42,539 nt of DNA from Thiogranum sp. (lineage in GTDB: Bacteria > Pseudomonadota > Gammaproteobacteria > DSM-19610): contig JAGXGS010000044.1 of the NCBI GenBank assembly GCA_024636585.1, positions 1 to 42,539 of the forward strand, written 5' to 3'. The notes beneath the pieces are model-generated. The model worked only from the letters and a program-made list of their open reading frames with translations, had not been told where the DNA came from and did not search any database. The position numbers and the translations under genes were made by a program. This document shows positions 3,166 to 7,549 of the stretch, piece by piece. Within the stretch, counting starts at the first letter, position 1, and each line of letters begins with the position of its first letter.

Positions 3166-4887
3166 ATGCGGTTAATGTTGACCTTTTTCAGAGCCTATCC
3201 GTGGCAGTCCGCCGTCATGCTCCTGGCCCTGCTGTTCGCCGGAATCGCGGAGGGCGTCGGCCTGTCGGCGTTGTTACCGCTCATCAACATCGCCATCAAG
3301 GATGAGAGTGCCGAGCGCAATGAATTCGAGCGCGCCATCACCGATTTCCTGCTCAGCGTCGGCATTCAGCCGACCATCGGCACCCTGCTGATTATCATCG
3401 TTCTGGGCGTGACGGTTAAAAGCCTGCTGTTGCTGGTAGCCAACAAGCAGGTCGGCTACACAGCCGCGCGCGTGGCGCTGGACCTGCGTCTGGACATGCT
3501 GCGCGCGATCCTGCGCAGCAAGTGGGAGTATTTCATTCACCAGCCGATCGGCAAACTCACCAACAGTCTGGCCACGGAAGCACAGCGGTCTTCCGAATCG
3601 TTCGTCAATGGCGCCACCGTAATCACCTTCCTGGTGCAGGCGATCATCTACGGCGCGGTGGCGGTCGCGGTATCCTGGAAAGCGACCCTGATCGGTCTGG
3701 GGGCGGGCATCATCATTATCGGCATTTCGCACTTCCTGGTGCGCATGGCCAAACGCGCCGGCAAGCGCCAGACCGGCCTGCTGATTTCCCTGCTCACGCA
3801 GTTGACCGACACCCTGCTGTCAGTGAAGCCTTTGAAAGCCATGGGGCAGGCGCATCTGGCCGACGCGGTGCTCGCCATGGAGACCAGAAAACTCAACAAG
3901 GCCGTGAAGCGCCAGGTATTCAGCAGCGCTCTGCTGAACGTGGCGCAGGAAGAAATGTCCACCATTGTGATCGCGCTGGGCATGTTCGTGGCACTGGTAC
4001 AGTTCGAGATGCCGGTGGCTACAGTGATGATCCTTGCGGTAGCGCTGGGCCGCATGCTGGCGCATTTTGGCAAGGTGCAGAAGCAATATCAGAAGATGGT
4101 GATCGGCGAAAGCGCCTTCTGGTCGATGCGGCGCACCATCGATGAAGCCCGACGCGCGGAAGAACGACTGGACGGCAGCATCGCACCGCCGCCGCTCAAC
4201 AGCAGTATCGAGCTGCGCGACGTAAGTTTTTCCTATACCGATGCGCCAGTGGTGCAGAATCTTTCGATGGAGATCCCGGGCGGCGGTCTGACAACGCTGG
4301 TCGGCCCATCAGGATCGGGAAAAACTACGATCATCGATCTGATCATCGGGCTGTTGCAGCCACAGTCCGGCGAAGTATTGATCGACGGGGTACCGCTGCA
4401 TACCCTCGACAGCACCGCATGGCGTCGCATGATCGGCTATGTGCCGCAGGAGACTATCCTGCTGCACGACAGCATTCATCACAATGTATCGCTGGGCGAT
4501 GAAGCGCTCAGTGAGCAGGACGTCGAAAATGCATTGCGCGCCGCCGGCGCCTGGGACTTCGTTGCGGCGTTGCCGCTGGGCATGCATGACACGGTCGGCG
4601 AGCGCGGCACCCGCTTATCGGGTGGGCAGCGCCAGCGCATCATGATCGCACGGGCGCTGGCGCACAAACCGAAACTGCTGATCCTCGACGAGGCTACCAG
4701 TGCCCTGGACCCGGCCAGTGAAGCCGCCATTCGCGATACCCTGCAGCAACTGCGGGGCAAACTCACCATCCTTGCCATCTCCCATCAGACCGGTCTGGTC
4801 GAGGCCGCGGATCGCGTCTATCGACTGGAGGCCGGCACCGTCAGGAGCGTGGAAGACCAGCGCCTGTCAGAGCATCCCGGGGAATAG
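3166..4887 (+). CDS. MsbA-like ABC half-transporter (membrane domain fused to ATPase)
   Basis: This 573-residue protein has an exporter-type six-helix membrane domain (about residues 1-320) followed by an ATP-binding domain. Visible motifs are Walker A GPSGSGKTT (about 380), Q-loop VPQETILLHDSI, signature LSGGQRQR (about 484), Walker B LLILDEATSALD (about 504) and a switch-region SHQ in place of the usual SHR/H. It should act as a homodimer that flips a lipid or lipid-linked molecule across the inner membrane. It lies 86 bases after lptG on the same strand and its 3' end overlaps the convergent ELM1 gene by 21 bases. The substrate is unknown. True MsbA normally sits with lpxK, which is absent here, so this is probably a dedicated lipid exporter rather than the housekeeping one. 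Confidence 0.8.
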   Translation: MRLMLTFFRAYPWQSAVMLLALLFAGIAEGVGLSALLPLINIAIKDESAERNEFERAITDFLLSVGIQPTIGTLLIIIVLGVTVKSLLLLVANKQVGYTAARVALDLRLDMLRAILRSKWEYFIHQPIGKLTNSLATEAQRSSESFVNGATVITFLVQAIIYGAVAVAVSWKATLIGLGAGIIIIGISHFLVRMAKRAGKRQTGLLISLLTQLTDTLLSVKPLKAMGQAHLADAVLAMETRKLNKAVKRQVFSSALLNVAQEEMSTIVIALGMFVALVQFEMPVATVMILAVALGRMLAHFGKVQKQYQKMVIGESAFWSMRRTIDEARRAEERLDGSIAPPPLNSSIELRDVSFSYTDAPVVQNLSMEIPGGGLTTLVGPSGSGKTTIIDLIIGLLQPQSGEVLIDGVPLHTLDSTAWRRMIGYVPQETILLHDSIHHNVSLGDEALSEQDVENALRAAGAWDFVAALPLGMHDTVGERGTRLSGGQRQRIMIARALAHKPKLLILDEATSALDPASEAAIRDTLQQLRGKLTILAISHQTGLVEAADRVYRLEAGTVRSVEDQRLSEHPGE

Positions 4888-5973
4888 CGCGCGCACCCGC
4901 TGCACGGCGCGCTCCAGATCACTGCAATCGGCAACCGGCGGCCGGTTAAAGGTTTCATCCAGCCACACGGCCCGACCACTGTTCACCAGCTCCCGGTGGA
5001 CCAGGCGCAGATCGCGGCTGAGCCGCTGCGGTCCGCACGCCATCATGAAGCTGTAGGTCATGGCGCTGAAACGAAAATCACGGGGCACTGCATGACCGGG
5101 TCGCATCGCATACCCATAGCCACCGAGATCGGCGATATAAACCGGTTTGCCGGTTGCGCAGGCTTCACTCAGCATCGAAATACTGTCGGCTGTCACCACC
5201 GCCGCATCGCATAGCGCCAGAATTCCAAAATACGGATTATCCAGGTCCTGCGCTCGCCAGTGATGTATGTAATACGGCACCGACAGCTGGTCTTCGAAAG
5301 CGCGCGCGGCAGCTGGCGAGGTCCGCGCGCTGGTAGAAACGAGCAGTGAATATCCCTGCGCTTCGGCCAGGCGGTTCACCCGCCGCGCAATCGACGCCGC
5401 ATTTTTCGGCCCCAGCGTATAGGGTCCGCTGTTACCACCGAGAATCACTGCCAGCCAGGGCTTCGGCAGATGTGCGAAACGCTCCGCCCAGTGTTCGCCG
5501 GCCGCGGCCAGGCGCTGCGGTGTCAGACGGTGCAGCGTGACGACGTTATGCAGCACCTTCGGGTGCGCGGCCAGGCGATACTGGGGCGTGGTCACGATCA
5601 GATCGAAATTATCCGGGCGCGCCCAGGGCCTGCCGAGGTGCACGATACGGGTGCGACCGGCGTTCTGATCGCGGATCCAGCGGCACACCGGCTCGTTGCG
5701 CATGCCGGCGGAAATCACCAGGTCCGGCCAGGGCGGCTCCAGCGTACTCGAACGGTCGAGGCGGATACCGCGCAAATCGCTGCCGCGCAACAGGCTGGTG
5801 CGGAATTCACTGCGACGGTAACTGAGTTCCTTGAGTTCATACGGCCAGCCCAGCGCTTCAGCCAGGGCCAGAATCTGGCTGCGTTCGCCGGCGCGATAGC
5901 CGGTAACCAGCCAGACACGGGGAGTGACAGCATCAGGCGTGCCGGGAGATGGGGTGGCCACAGGCGGGTTCAT
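4867..5973 (-). CDS. ELM1-family protein, copy 2
   Basis: A complete 368-residue ELM1-family (formerly DUF1022) protein. Key blocks are VWLVTGYRAGERSQ, PPWPDLVISAGMRNEP, HLGRPWARPDNFDLIV, ILGGNSGPY, LLVSTSARTSP and TADSISMLSEACATGKP, consistent with a two-lobed GT-B-like fold. There is no signal peptide or obvious membrane helix, so it is probably cytoplasmic or peripheral. The function in bacteria is not established; a glycosyltransferase acting on an envelope lipid is an inference from fold-like motifs and context. The start is placed at ATG 5973; a GTG four codons upstream (5985) is also possible, and neither has a clear ribosome binding site. The 3' end runs 21 bases into the ABC transporter gene on the other strand. 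Confidence 0.8.
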   Translation of the reverse strand: MNPPVATPSPGTPDAVTPRVWLVTGYRAGERSQILALAEALGWPYELKELSYRRSEFRTSLLRGSDLRGIRLDRSSTLEPPWPDLVISAGMRNEPVCRWIRDQNAGRTRIVHLGRPWARPDNFDLIVTTPQYRLAAHPKVLHNVVTLHRLTPQRLAAAGEHWAERFAHLPKPWLAVILGGNSGPYTLGPKNAASIARRVNRLAEAQGYSLLVSTSARTSPAAARAFEDQLSVPYYIHHWRAQDLDNPYFGILALCDAAVVTADSISMLSEACATGKPVYIADLGGYGYAMRPGHAVPRDFRFSAMTYSFMMACGPQRLSRDLRLVHRELVNSGRAVWLDETFNRPPVADCSDLERAVQRVRALFPGML

Positions 5974-6365: not shown

Positions 6366-7549
6366 GCCTGTTCGATAAATTTCAGCCCATTATCGACATC
6401 CGGGCCGACCTCGCCGCGCTCGGCGTGATGCCGTTCGGCGCGGTCACGGAAAAAATCCTCTCGCCCACCGAAGCGGTGGTGGATGGACACAAGGTGATCC
6501 TGGCCGGCACCAATAATTACCTGGGACTGACTTTCGATCCCGAATGCATCGCTGCGGCCAAACAGGCGCTGGATGAAATGGGCACCGGCACCACCGGTTC
6601 GCGCATGGCCAACGGCACCTTCATCGGTCACGTGCAACTGGAGCAGGAACTGGCGGAATTTTTCGCCCGCCAGCATGCCATCGTGTTTTCGACCGGTTAT
6701 GCAGCCACCATGGGCATGGGTTCGACACTGGCCGGACGCGGCGACATCATCGTGCTGGACGCCGACAGTCATGCCAGCATCTATGACGGTGTGCGACTGG
6801 GCGGGGCTGAGGTGATTCGTTTTCGTCACAACGACCCGACCGACCTGGAAAAGCGCCTGCGCCGGCTCGGCGATCGCATCGACAAAACCCTGATTATCGT
6901 CGAAGGCATCTACAGCATGGTCGGCGACCAGGCACGGCTGGCAGAGATTGCCGAAGTCAAACGCAAATACGGCGGCATGCTGCTGGTCGACGAGGCGCAT
7001 TCACTCGGCATGCTCGGCGCGCATGGCCGCGGTGTCGCGGAAGCGGCCGGCGTCGAGAAGGATGTGGATTTTATTGTCGGCACCTTCAGCAAGAGCCTGG
7101 GCGCCATTGGTGGTTACTGTGTCAGCGACCATCCGCAACTGGAAGCGATTCGCTTCGCCATCCGCTCGTATATTTTCACCGCCTCGCCCTCGCCCTCGAC
7201 GATTGCCTCGACACGCGTGGCGCTGCGCCTGATGCAGGAACGTCCGGAGTTGCGCCAGCGCCTGTGGGACAATGCGCAACGGCTGTACGATGGCCTGAAA
7301 GACCTCGGCCTGCAGGTGAGTCCGCAGGTCAGCCCGGTAGTTGCCGTGACTATCAAAGATCGCAACCAGGCCATCGCCGCCTGGACTCATTTGCTGCACC
7401 ACGGCGCCTATGTAAACCTGGTGATGCCGCCGGCATCGCCGACCAACGACAGCCTGCTGCGTTGCAGCGTCAGCGCCGCACACAGTACCGAGCAGATCGA
7501 CCGCATCATTGCCGCTTTCGCCGCCCTGCCTGCCGCCAACACCGGATAG
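6362..7549 (+). CDS. Serine palmitoyltransferase-like alpha-oxoamine synthase (PLP enzyme)
   Basis: A 395-residue PLP enzyme of the alpha-oxoamine synthase group, which condenses an amino acid with an acyl thioester and releases CO2. Visible are the PLP-stacking H137 in [12 protein letters not shown]210 and H213 in [16 protein letters not shown], and the Schiff-base K244 in [13 protein letters not shown]. The FSKS context followed by CVSDHP, and [14 protein letters not shown], resemble bacterial serine palmitoyltransferase rather than KBL or BioF, which normally read GxLGKALG. The expected reaction is L-serine plus acyl-ACP/CoA to a 3-keto sphingoid base. The overlapping acyl carrier protein gene supports an acyl-ACP donor, as seen in other sphingolipid-making bacteria. 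Substrate identity is inferred, not shown. A glycine- or alanine-using relative remains possible. Confidence 0.75.

What the first reader, a model, noticed from the sequence alone, without database searches (positions are those of the whole stretch)
3166..7549. Possible dedicated sphingoid-lipid synthesis and export cassette beside lptFG
An acyl carrier protein overlaps a serine-palmitoyltransferase-like enzyme. Next to them are an MsbA-like ABC exporter, two ELM1-family (possible glycosyltransferase) genes and the LptF/LptG permeases. Acyl-carrier plus SPT pairs are established in sphingolipid-making bacteria, and some bacteria send anionic sphingolipids to the outer membrane. Placing these genes with an exporter and the Lpt permeases in a gammaproteobacterium suggests an undescribed pathway for a decorated sphingoid or related lipid. 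The enzyme's substrate and the linkage are inference.
Basis: partly seen in the sequence, partly recalled or inferred. Interest (0 to 1): 0.85.

Follow-up and report, generated by a model that had tools for sequence, protein, structure and literature searches.

The report
Sphingolipid cluster with its own exporter
A gammaproteobacterium known from a draft genome carries the genes for making ceramide lipids next to a second, dedicated set of export genes, including a candidate membrane flippase that in the genomes sampled occurs almost only together with sphingolipid genes, which suggests how such lipids may reach the cell surface.

Summary
The window carries lptF, lptG, an MsbA-like ABC exporter, two PF06258 (ELM1) genes, an ACP and a serine palmitoyltransferase (SPT), in an order conserved in the genus. 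The SPT passes NCBIfam's SPT model and sits in the SPT clade. CerS, AasR and CerR are on another contig of the same genome; contiguous relatives show one 25-30 kb cluster. The lptFG pair is not the housekeeping pair but groups with the sphingolipid-cluster copies of E. coli and others.

Most of this is published for Caulobacter, E. coli B and other proteobacteria (acpR-spt, ceramide genes, LptF2/G2), so 'undescribed pathway' is too strong. Not found in print: the ABC exporter and the ELM1 genes as sphingolipid genes. In 274 gammaproteobacteria the exporter occurs in 14, of which 13 have SPT (p 1e-18), far from SPT in five. An ELM1 clade occurs in 9 of 16 SPT genomes and in none of 49 tested SPT-negative ELM1 genomes. 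Best reading: ceramide synthesis with a dedicated flippase, GT-B head-group enzymes and a second Lpt permease pair. Chemistry and transport are untested.

The parts
1..852 (-). ELM1a: PF06258 protein, 3' part cut by the contig end; contig C35 of the same genome ends with the window's first 141 bases and carries the rest
840..2012 (+). lptF2: second, sphingolipid-cluster type LptF (start codon uncertain)
   Evidence: TIGR04407 310.8 bits; trees separate it from the housekeeping LptF
2009..3079 (+). lptG2: second, sphingolipid-cluster type LptG (ORF listed from 1931)
   Evidence: TIGR04408 263.5 bits; tree
3166..4887 (+). MsbA-like ABC exporter, candidate sphingolipid flippase; not canonical MsbA
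4867..5985 (-). ELM1b: PF06258 protein with predicted GT-B fold, candidate head-group glycosyltransferase
6117..6365 (+). acpR: specialised acyl carrier protein, phosphopantetheine serine S39
6362..7549 (+). spt: serine palmitoyltransferase (H137, H213, K244, R367 in motifs shared with solved SPTs)

Best explanation
The window holds the SPT-and-export half of a 25-30 kb sphingolipid locus. Shown by sequence: the genome encodes AasR, AcpR, SPT, CerS and CerR homologues, the published set for ceramide in proteobacteria. Inferred: AasR loads a fatty acid on AcpR, SPT condenses it with L-serine to 3-oxo-sphinganine, CerS adds the second acyl chain, CerR reduces it, and a DAGK-type lipid kinase with nucleotidyltransferases adds a phospho head group as in Caulobacter. 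Inferred: the ABC exporter (3166-4887) flips the ceramide, or its head-grouped form, across the inner membrane, doing the job for which other clusters have a different putative flippase; ELM1 enzymes with GT-B fold add sugar to the head group; and LptF2/LptG2, a dedicated copy of the Lpt permease, hands the lipid to the Lpt bridge towards the outer membrane beside normal LPS. The order of steps and the exporter's substrate are not known.
For: SPT identity: NF047599 628.7 bits vs cut-off 500, BioF/KBL/CqsA-type models below theirs; nearest solved structures are bacterial SPTs (2x8u, 2jgt; from Sphingomonas, recalled), motifs kept; SPT clade 100* with E. coli and Sphingobium SPT, BioF outside. 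CerS, AasR, CerR on C81 of the own genome; CerS and CerR not found in the two SPT-negative sister-genus genomes. Contiguous cluster in G004, G010, G014, G015, G017, and most of it in a Spongiibacteraceae MAG. An ACP match in 71 of 71 SPT loci, directly beside SPT in all but L233. Both Lpt trees split housekeeping (9 rows) from SPT-linked copies (21 rows). Exporter: 13 of 14 exporter-positive genomes of 274 are SPT-positive; Fisher p 1.3e-18, 1e-10 by family, 2e-12 without own family and the doubtful family f45; far from SPT or on another contig in five genomes (G032, G063, G168, G203, G279). Canonical MsbA exists separately (759 bits). ELM1 clade: 55 rows, all from SPT-positive genomes or contigs; 0 of 49 tested SPT-negative ELM1 genomes of the class sample fall in it.
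Against: No lipid data and no assay. 3 of 16 SPT genomes over cut-off lack the exporter (G174, G284, G220), as do the two below it (G128, G244, which also showed no ACP match). In one exporter-positive genome no SPT was found (G027, 75% complete). Genomes in the sample are related, so p-values overstate independence. Two exporter-positive genomes (f45: G063, G203) are only 37-41% identical and loosely placed, and they are two of the five unlinked cases. Most rows of the exporter and ELM1 clades were collected from SPT loci. The ELM1 clade's support fell from 100 to 93 when 41 rows were added. ELM1's GT-B model matches UDP-GlcNAc 2-epimerases slightly better than glycosyltransferases. The organism also makes LPS (LpxC), so any envelope gene here could serve LPS. 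Two alphaproteobacterial LptF and LptG rows from SPT loci fall outside both Lpt clades. The exporter's own model was poor (pLDDT 71).
Confidence: 0.68

Rival explanations
1. Plain known system: this is just the published Rhodobacteria ceramide/phosphoglycerate cluster; the ABC exporter and ELM1 genes are incidental neighbours.
For: acpR-spt, cerS, cerR, aasR, LptF2/G2, a DAGK kinase and an NTP-transferase match the published Caulobacter/E. coli arrangement.
Against: The exporter co-occurs with SPT in 13 of 14 cases across 8 families, far from SPT in five genomes; an ELM1 clade is confined to SPT genomes, also where unlinked (G032, G138, G264). Incidental neighbours would not track SPT when unlinked.
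Confidence: 0.15
2. The exporter and ELM1 enzymes serve LPS core or another glycolipid (or an undecaprenol-linked glycan), and the sphingolipid genes merely share an envelope locus.
For: ELM1 proteins occur in the A. baumannii LOS outer-core locus (PMC10327509, PMC4172580, passages); the locus also has GT4, Wzy_C, sulfotransferase and asparagine synthase-like genes; LPS is made.
Against: The LPS-positive, SPT-negative sister genus (2 genomes) has one lptFG pair and no exporter of this type among its listed matches; 50 of 62 ELM1-positive genomes lack SPT, and none of the 49 tested falls in the window's ELM1 clade.
Confidence: 0.2
3. The enzyme is not an SPT but uses another amino acid (cysteate, glycine, alanine) to make a related lipid.
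For: The alpha-oxoamine synthase family is versatile; cysteate C-fatty acyltransferase is among the PDB matches (2.8e-60).
Against: Much better match to SPTs (8.5e-138) and NF047599 over cut-off; the ceramide genes co-occur.
Confidence: 0.04

Closest known systems
Caulobacter crescentus ceramide / ceramide di-phosphoglycerate cluster CC_1168-CC_1152 (PMC11324152, PMC9386255, PMC12275187)
   Same: aasR, cerR, acpR, spt, cerS, a lipid kinase, an NTP-transferase and second LptF/LptG copies; export to the outer membrane is proposed there too
   Different: Here an MsbA-like ABC exporter and three ELM1 genes, with a variable GT4/Wzy_C/sulfotransferase block inside the locus; there a potential flippase CC_1166. 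Caulobacter proteins themselves were not compared here.
Escherichia coli acpR-spt cluster with yghO/cerS and a second lptFG (strain YZLc4-1, locus L088)
   Same: the same five ceramide genes, and LptF2/LptG2 in the same clade
   Different: carries a gene annotated 'lipopolysaccharide biosynthesis protein' (taken here as the putative flippase, not tested) and no ABC exporter or ELM1 gene in the 18.7 kb shown
MsbA lipid A flippase
   Same: same ABC exporter family (249.8 bits to TIGR02203)
   Different: far below the 602-bit cut-off; a true MsbA is on C76 (759 bits)
GtrOC1-type ELM1 proteins of the Acinetobacter baumannii lipooligosaccharide outer-core locus (PMC10327509, PMC4172580)
   Same: PF06258, clan CL0113, predicted sugar transferases of an outer-membrane lipid
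   Different: A. baumannii sequences were not compared, so their place relative to the window's clade is unknown

Membership tests
Proteobacterial (rhodobacterial) serine palmitoyltransferase | Scores over the curated SPT model and below KBL/BioF/CqsA-type cut-offs | tested here: met
   NF047599 628.7 (500); bioF 332.6 (426.45), KBL PRK06939 312.5 (460), PRK07179 198.1 (428)
Proteobacterial (rhodobacterial) serine palmitoyltransferase | Groups with known SPTs, not BioF, in a tree | tested here: met
   100* clade with E. coli and Sphingobium SPT; KBL and CqsA sequences were not in the tree
Proteobacterial (rhodobacterial) serine palmitoyltransferase | PLP lysine and catalytic histidines kept | tested here: met
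   motifs DADSH137, DEAH213, TFSK244, LLR367 align with 2x8u and 2jgt; roles recalled
Proteobacterial (rhodobacterial) serine palmitoyltransferase | Makes 3-oxo-sphinganine from L-serine | not testable with these tools
   needs an enzyme assay
AcpR, specialised sphingolipid ACP | PP-binding domain with serine, directly upstream of spt, not housekeeping AcpP | tested here: met
   PF00550, S39; TIGR00517 28.6 bits vs cut-off 70.45; ACP match in 71 of 71 SPT loci, beside SPT in all but L233. No ACP tree was made.
Rhodobacterial ceramide pathway | aasR, cerR, acpR, spt, cerS in one genome | tested here: met
   (homology to the E. coli cluster proteins)
Ceramide phosphoglycerate (CPG/CPG2) pathway | CpgA-D orthologues | tested here: inconclusive
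   DAGK_cat, MobA-like NTP-transferase and metallophosphoesterase genes in the cluster; Caulobacter proteins not compared
LptF2/LptG2 of sphingolipid clusters | Second copy distinct from housekeeping LptFG and grouping with sphingolipid-cluster copies | tested here: met
   two alphaproteobacterial rows fall outside both clades
MsbA lipid A exporter | Over the TIGR02203 cut-off | tested here: not met
   249.8 vs 602 bits; separate MsbA on C76
GT-B glycosyltransferase (for the ELM1 gene) | Full-length GT-B fold | tested here: met
GT-B glycosyltransferase (for the ELM1 gene) | Transfers sugar rather than epimerising NDP-sugar | tested here: inconclusive

The most novel reading that the evidence does not exclude
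The locus builds a ceramide-anchored, glycosylated and perhaps sulfated outer-membrane glycolipid, a sphingolipid counterpart of lipooligosaccharide made alongside true LPS, with its own MsbA-like flippase (3166-4887), its own ELM1 glycosyltransferase clade and its own Lpt permease pair. The exporter would be a first sphingolipid flippase of this kind in proteobacteria, exchangeable with the different putative flippase of other clusters.
Probability: 0.38. Interest if true: 0.82.

Novelty: new variant of a known kind. Interest (0 to 1): 0.62.

Why it matters
PMC11324152 (passage) states that it is not known how sphingolipids get from the inner to the outer membrane, and PMC11087976 (part 1 of 4) places the reductase CerR in the periplasm, so something must move ceramide across the inner membrane. 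An exporter whose presence follows SPT across gammaproteobacterial families, even when far from it, is a named and testable candidate, and the ELM1 clade is one for the head group. Salinicola strains of culture collections carry the exporter directly after spt (loci L048, L049), so the test is feasible.

Tried and rejected
Rejected: KBL/BioF identity of the enzyme; canonical MsbA identity of the exporter; housekeeping identity of the lptFG pair, even though both proteins pass the NCBIfam LptF/LptG cut-offs, which therefore do not separate the two kinds.

Led nowhere: phmmer of ELM1 against the PDB (3 weak matches, best E 0.0078); Pfam on four 818-979 residue ELM1 fusions (only PF06258 found); Pfam on the gene called NTunk (no family); the exporter's structure model, too poor to search (pLDDT 71.1, pTM 0.48; no fold search made); neighbours of the unlinked exporters (no gene shared by them all beyond the exporter). 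ELM1 plus glycosyltransferase plus sphingolipid plus bacteria in print: 0 papers.

Rows dropped: exporter tree, rows of 300 residues or fewer and two named rows, one a duplicate and one partial; ELM1 trees, 5 duplicate or partial rows of 78 and the 53-residue fragment of G050. That leaves 49 of the 50 SPT-negative ELM1 genomes tested (10, 39 more). The 71 SPT loci leave out L083 (an ALAS) and L243/L244 (SPT-like, under 45% identity). Some of the 71 may be the same species. The family-level count takes 168 families from the highest code I saw.
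Full report
WHAT IS THERE. The window is the whole of contig C69 of a 2.6 Mb, 83% complete genome. Its nearest named relatives are Thiogranum, Thiohalobacter and unnamed gammaproteobacterial MAGs. On the + strand: ELM1a (1-852, -, cut), lptF (840-2012), lptG (~2009-3079), an ABC exporter (3166-4887), ELM1b (4867-5985, -), ACP (6117-6365), SPT (6362-7549), then murA (7555-8847). The exporter and ELM1b are tail to tail, ELM1b and acp-spt diverge, and acp and spt overlap by 4 bases.

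THE ENZYME IS AN SPT. It scores 628.7 bits to NCBIfam's serine palmitoyltransferase model NF047599 (cut-off 500) and below the cut-offs of the BioF, KBL and CqsA-type models. The best solved structure is an SPT (2x8u, E 8.5e-138), with the PLP-lysine and histidine motifs kept (roles of the residues recalled). In a tree of 79 rows it lies in the SPT clade (100*) with E. coli and Sphingobium SPT, apart from the BioF rows. The only other match in its genome passes the BioF cut-off.

THE CERAMIDE PATHWAY IS COMPLETE. With E. coli cluster proteins as queries over 20 genomes of the order: CerS matched 17 of 20 (three of them fragments), AasR at E <= 8e-158 18 of 20, CerR at E <= 1.1e-56 18 of 20. 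The two genomes that lack SPT (G001, G002, one sister genus) gave no CerS or CerR match and only distant AasR homologues; G006 has SPT but gave no CerS match. In the window's genome all three lie on contig C81.

ONE LARGE LOCUS. In one search the genes GlcD, CerR, AasR, CerS, an NTP-transferase (PF12804), a metallophosphoesterase (PF00149), a DAGK-type lipid kinase (PF00781), an unknown gene (NTunk), ELM1c, a variable block, ELM1a, LptF, LptG, ABC, ELM1b, ACP, SPT and MurA can be read in this order within single contigs for G004, G010, G014, G015 and G017 (families tested on G004; G017's contig ends after SPT). A Spongiibacteraceae MAG (L080) has most of them, with the CerS block after MurA. 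In the window's genome contig C35 ends with the 141 bases with which the window begins, its last gene completes ELM1a, its first 66 bases hold the end of NTunk, and C81 starts inside the kinase gene. So C81, C35 and C69 very probably form the same locus. The variable block on C35 has GT4, asparagine synthase-like, methyltransferase and sulfotransferase genes.

CONSERVATION. Among 18 SPT-positive genomes of the order (own included) ELM1b-ACP-SPT is present in 18; the ABC gene is next to it in 16 (partial in G005 and G008), and in G009 and G016 the contig ends there. ELM1b of G014 holds a TAA and SPT of G003 a TGA. Over 71 SPT loci with varying flanks, an ACP match is in 71 (directly beside SPT in all but L233, where it is about 5.5 kb away), LptF or LptG in 44, the window-type ABC in 24, the E. 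coli-type putative flippase in 7, ELM1 in 22; ABC and the putative flippase are never in the same locus. Many flanks are short, so the counts are lower bounds.

LPTFG IS THE SECOND PAIR. PF03739 gives 2 matches in each SPT-negative sister-genus genome and 4 or more in 15 of the 18 SPT-positive ones (3 in G013, 2 in G005 and G017; G007 and G008 include weak fragments). Trees of LptF (32 rows) and LptG (32 rows) each separate a housekeeping clade of 9 rows, with the own copy on C55 and both SPT-negative genomes, from a clade of 21 SPT-linked copies that holds the window pair and the E. coli cluster's LptF/LptG (supports 98 and 92 for F, 92 and 92 for G); the remaining two rows, from Sphingobium and Acetobacter SPT loci, fall outside both.

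THE EXPORTER FOLLOWS SPT. Canonical MsbA is separate (C76, 759 bits; 18 of 20 genomes over the cut-off); the window's exporter scores 250 bits, and no match of its kind is listed for the two SPT-negative genomes (E <= 1e-60, 40 candidates scored in each). In 274 gammaproteobacterial genomes SPT (E <= 1e-120) is in 18, 16 of them over the curated cut-off. The exporter (E <= 1e-90) is in 14, and 13 of these are among the 16 (Fisher p 1.3e-18). By family 8 of 9 (p 1e-10). Leaving out the own family and the doubtful family f45 still gives p 2e-12. In G032, G063, G168, G203 and G279 the exporter is far from SPT or on another contig (G063 and G203 are f45), so shared position does not explain the link. 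SPT-positive genomes without it: G174, G284, G220 and, below cut-off, G128 and G244. The exception the other way, G027, is 75% complete with a hit cut by a contig edge. In the exporter tree all 33 clade rows but that one come from SPT genomes or loci, though most were collected from such loci. Relatedness among genomes makes the p-values optimistic.

HOW IT MOST LIKELY WORKS. Steps from fatty acid to ceramide follow the published pathway (PMC9386255 abstract, passages and section 13; PMC11324152 passages, section 8 part 1 and section 9; PMC12275187 part 1 of 4 and PMC10331486 passages for the head group) and are supported here by gene content only. That the exporter flips the ceramide or its derivative, that ELM1 enzymes glycosylate it and that LptF2/G2 carry it onward is inference from co-occurrence, clade and fold. 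Whether LptB, LptC, LptA and LptD are shared was not tested. LPS is also made (LpxC in 19 of 20).

KNOWN VERSUS NEW. Already known: acpR-spt, the five genes and second LptF/LptG beside them, including in gammaproteobacteria. PMC11324152 names CC_1166 as potential flippase and says that A. vinelandii, P. luteola and N. eutropha lack it; the exporter found here could fill such a gap, though those three genomes were not examined. Searches for the exporter or ELM1 as sphingolipid genes (listings only) found nothing in this open-access library, which lacks most subscription journals. Verdict: a new variant of a known kind, with a specific testable candidate for an open step.

Noticed in passing
window 21264-24341 (-), with 24369-26497 (-): One 1,025-residue protein combines two lipoyl domains, a 2-oxoacid dehydrogenase acyltransferase and a pyridine nucleotide-disulphide oxidoreductase (E2-E3 fusion), next to E1 alpha and beta type genes.
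   Followed up: no
L187 (own genome C80:14000-29148), 7000-9997: A second copy of the exporter (64% identical) beside another ELM1 of the same clade, away from the SPT locus; exporter and ELM1 matches also lie side by side on G010 C49.
   Followed up: partly
L236 9952-12888, L237 9887-12826, L270 8958-11669, L272 7350-9809, L081 16701-19157: Large proteins of about 820-980 residues with an ELM1 domain in the C-terminal part; four of the five were scanned and the N-terminal part has no Pfam match. All five are from SPT-positive genomes or contigs.
   Followed up: partly
E. coli complete genomes, L088: 4,055 of 5,426 complete E. coli genomes gave a 60-80% identical DNA match to part of the window's acp-spt stretch, annotated spt in the ten rows shown; the papers I saw speak of E. 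coli B and ETEC B7A.
   Followed up: partly
L047, L050, L064: MAGs labelled Desulfobacterales and Desulfuromonadales carry this type of ceramide cluster, L050 (and a cut copy in L047) with the window-type exporter after spt; horizontal transfer or binning error.
   Followed up: no
L094 and L197 (G008 C1, about 49 kb apart): In G008 the exporter gene appears as two partial matches about 49 kb apart, one beside lptFG and one beside acp-spt; rearrangement or misassembly.
   Followed up: no
L100 (G014) and L089 (G003): ELM1b of G014 and SPT of G003 each contain one in-frame stop in draft genomes.
   Followed up: no
L233 (G152): acp and spt are separated by about 5.5 kb with lptFG, NTunk and the kinase gene between them, unlike the usual overlap.
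   Followed up: no
window 9155-12651 (-): A pqiABC-like set (PF03886 lipoprotein at 9155-9760; MlaD-like 9778-11427 and PqiA-like 11393-12651 by eye) lies just downstream of murA.
   Followed up: no
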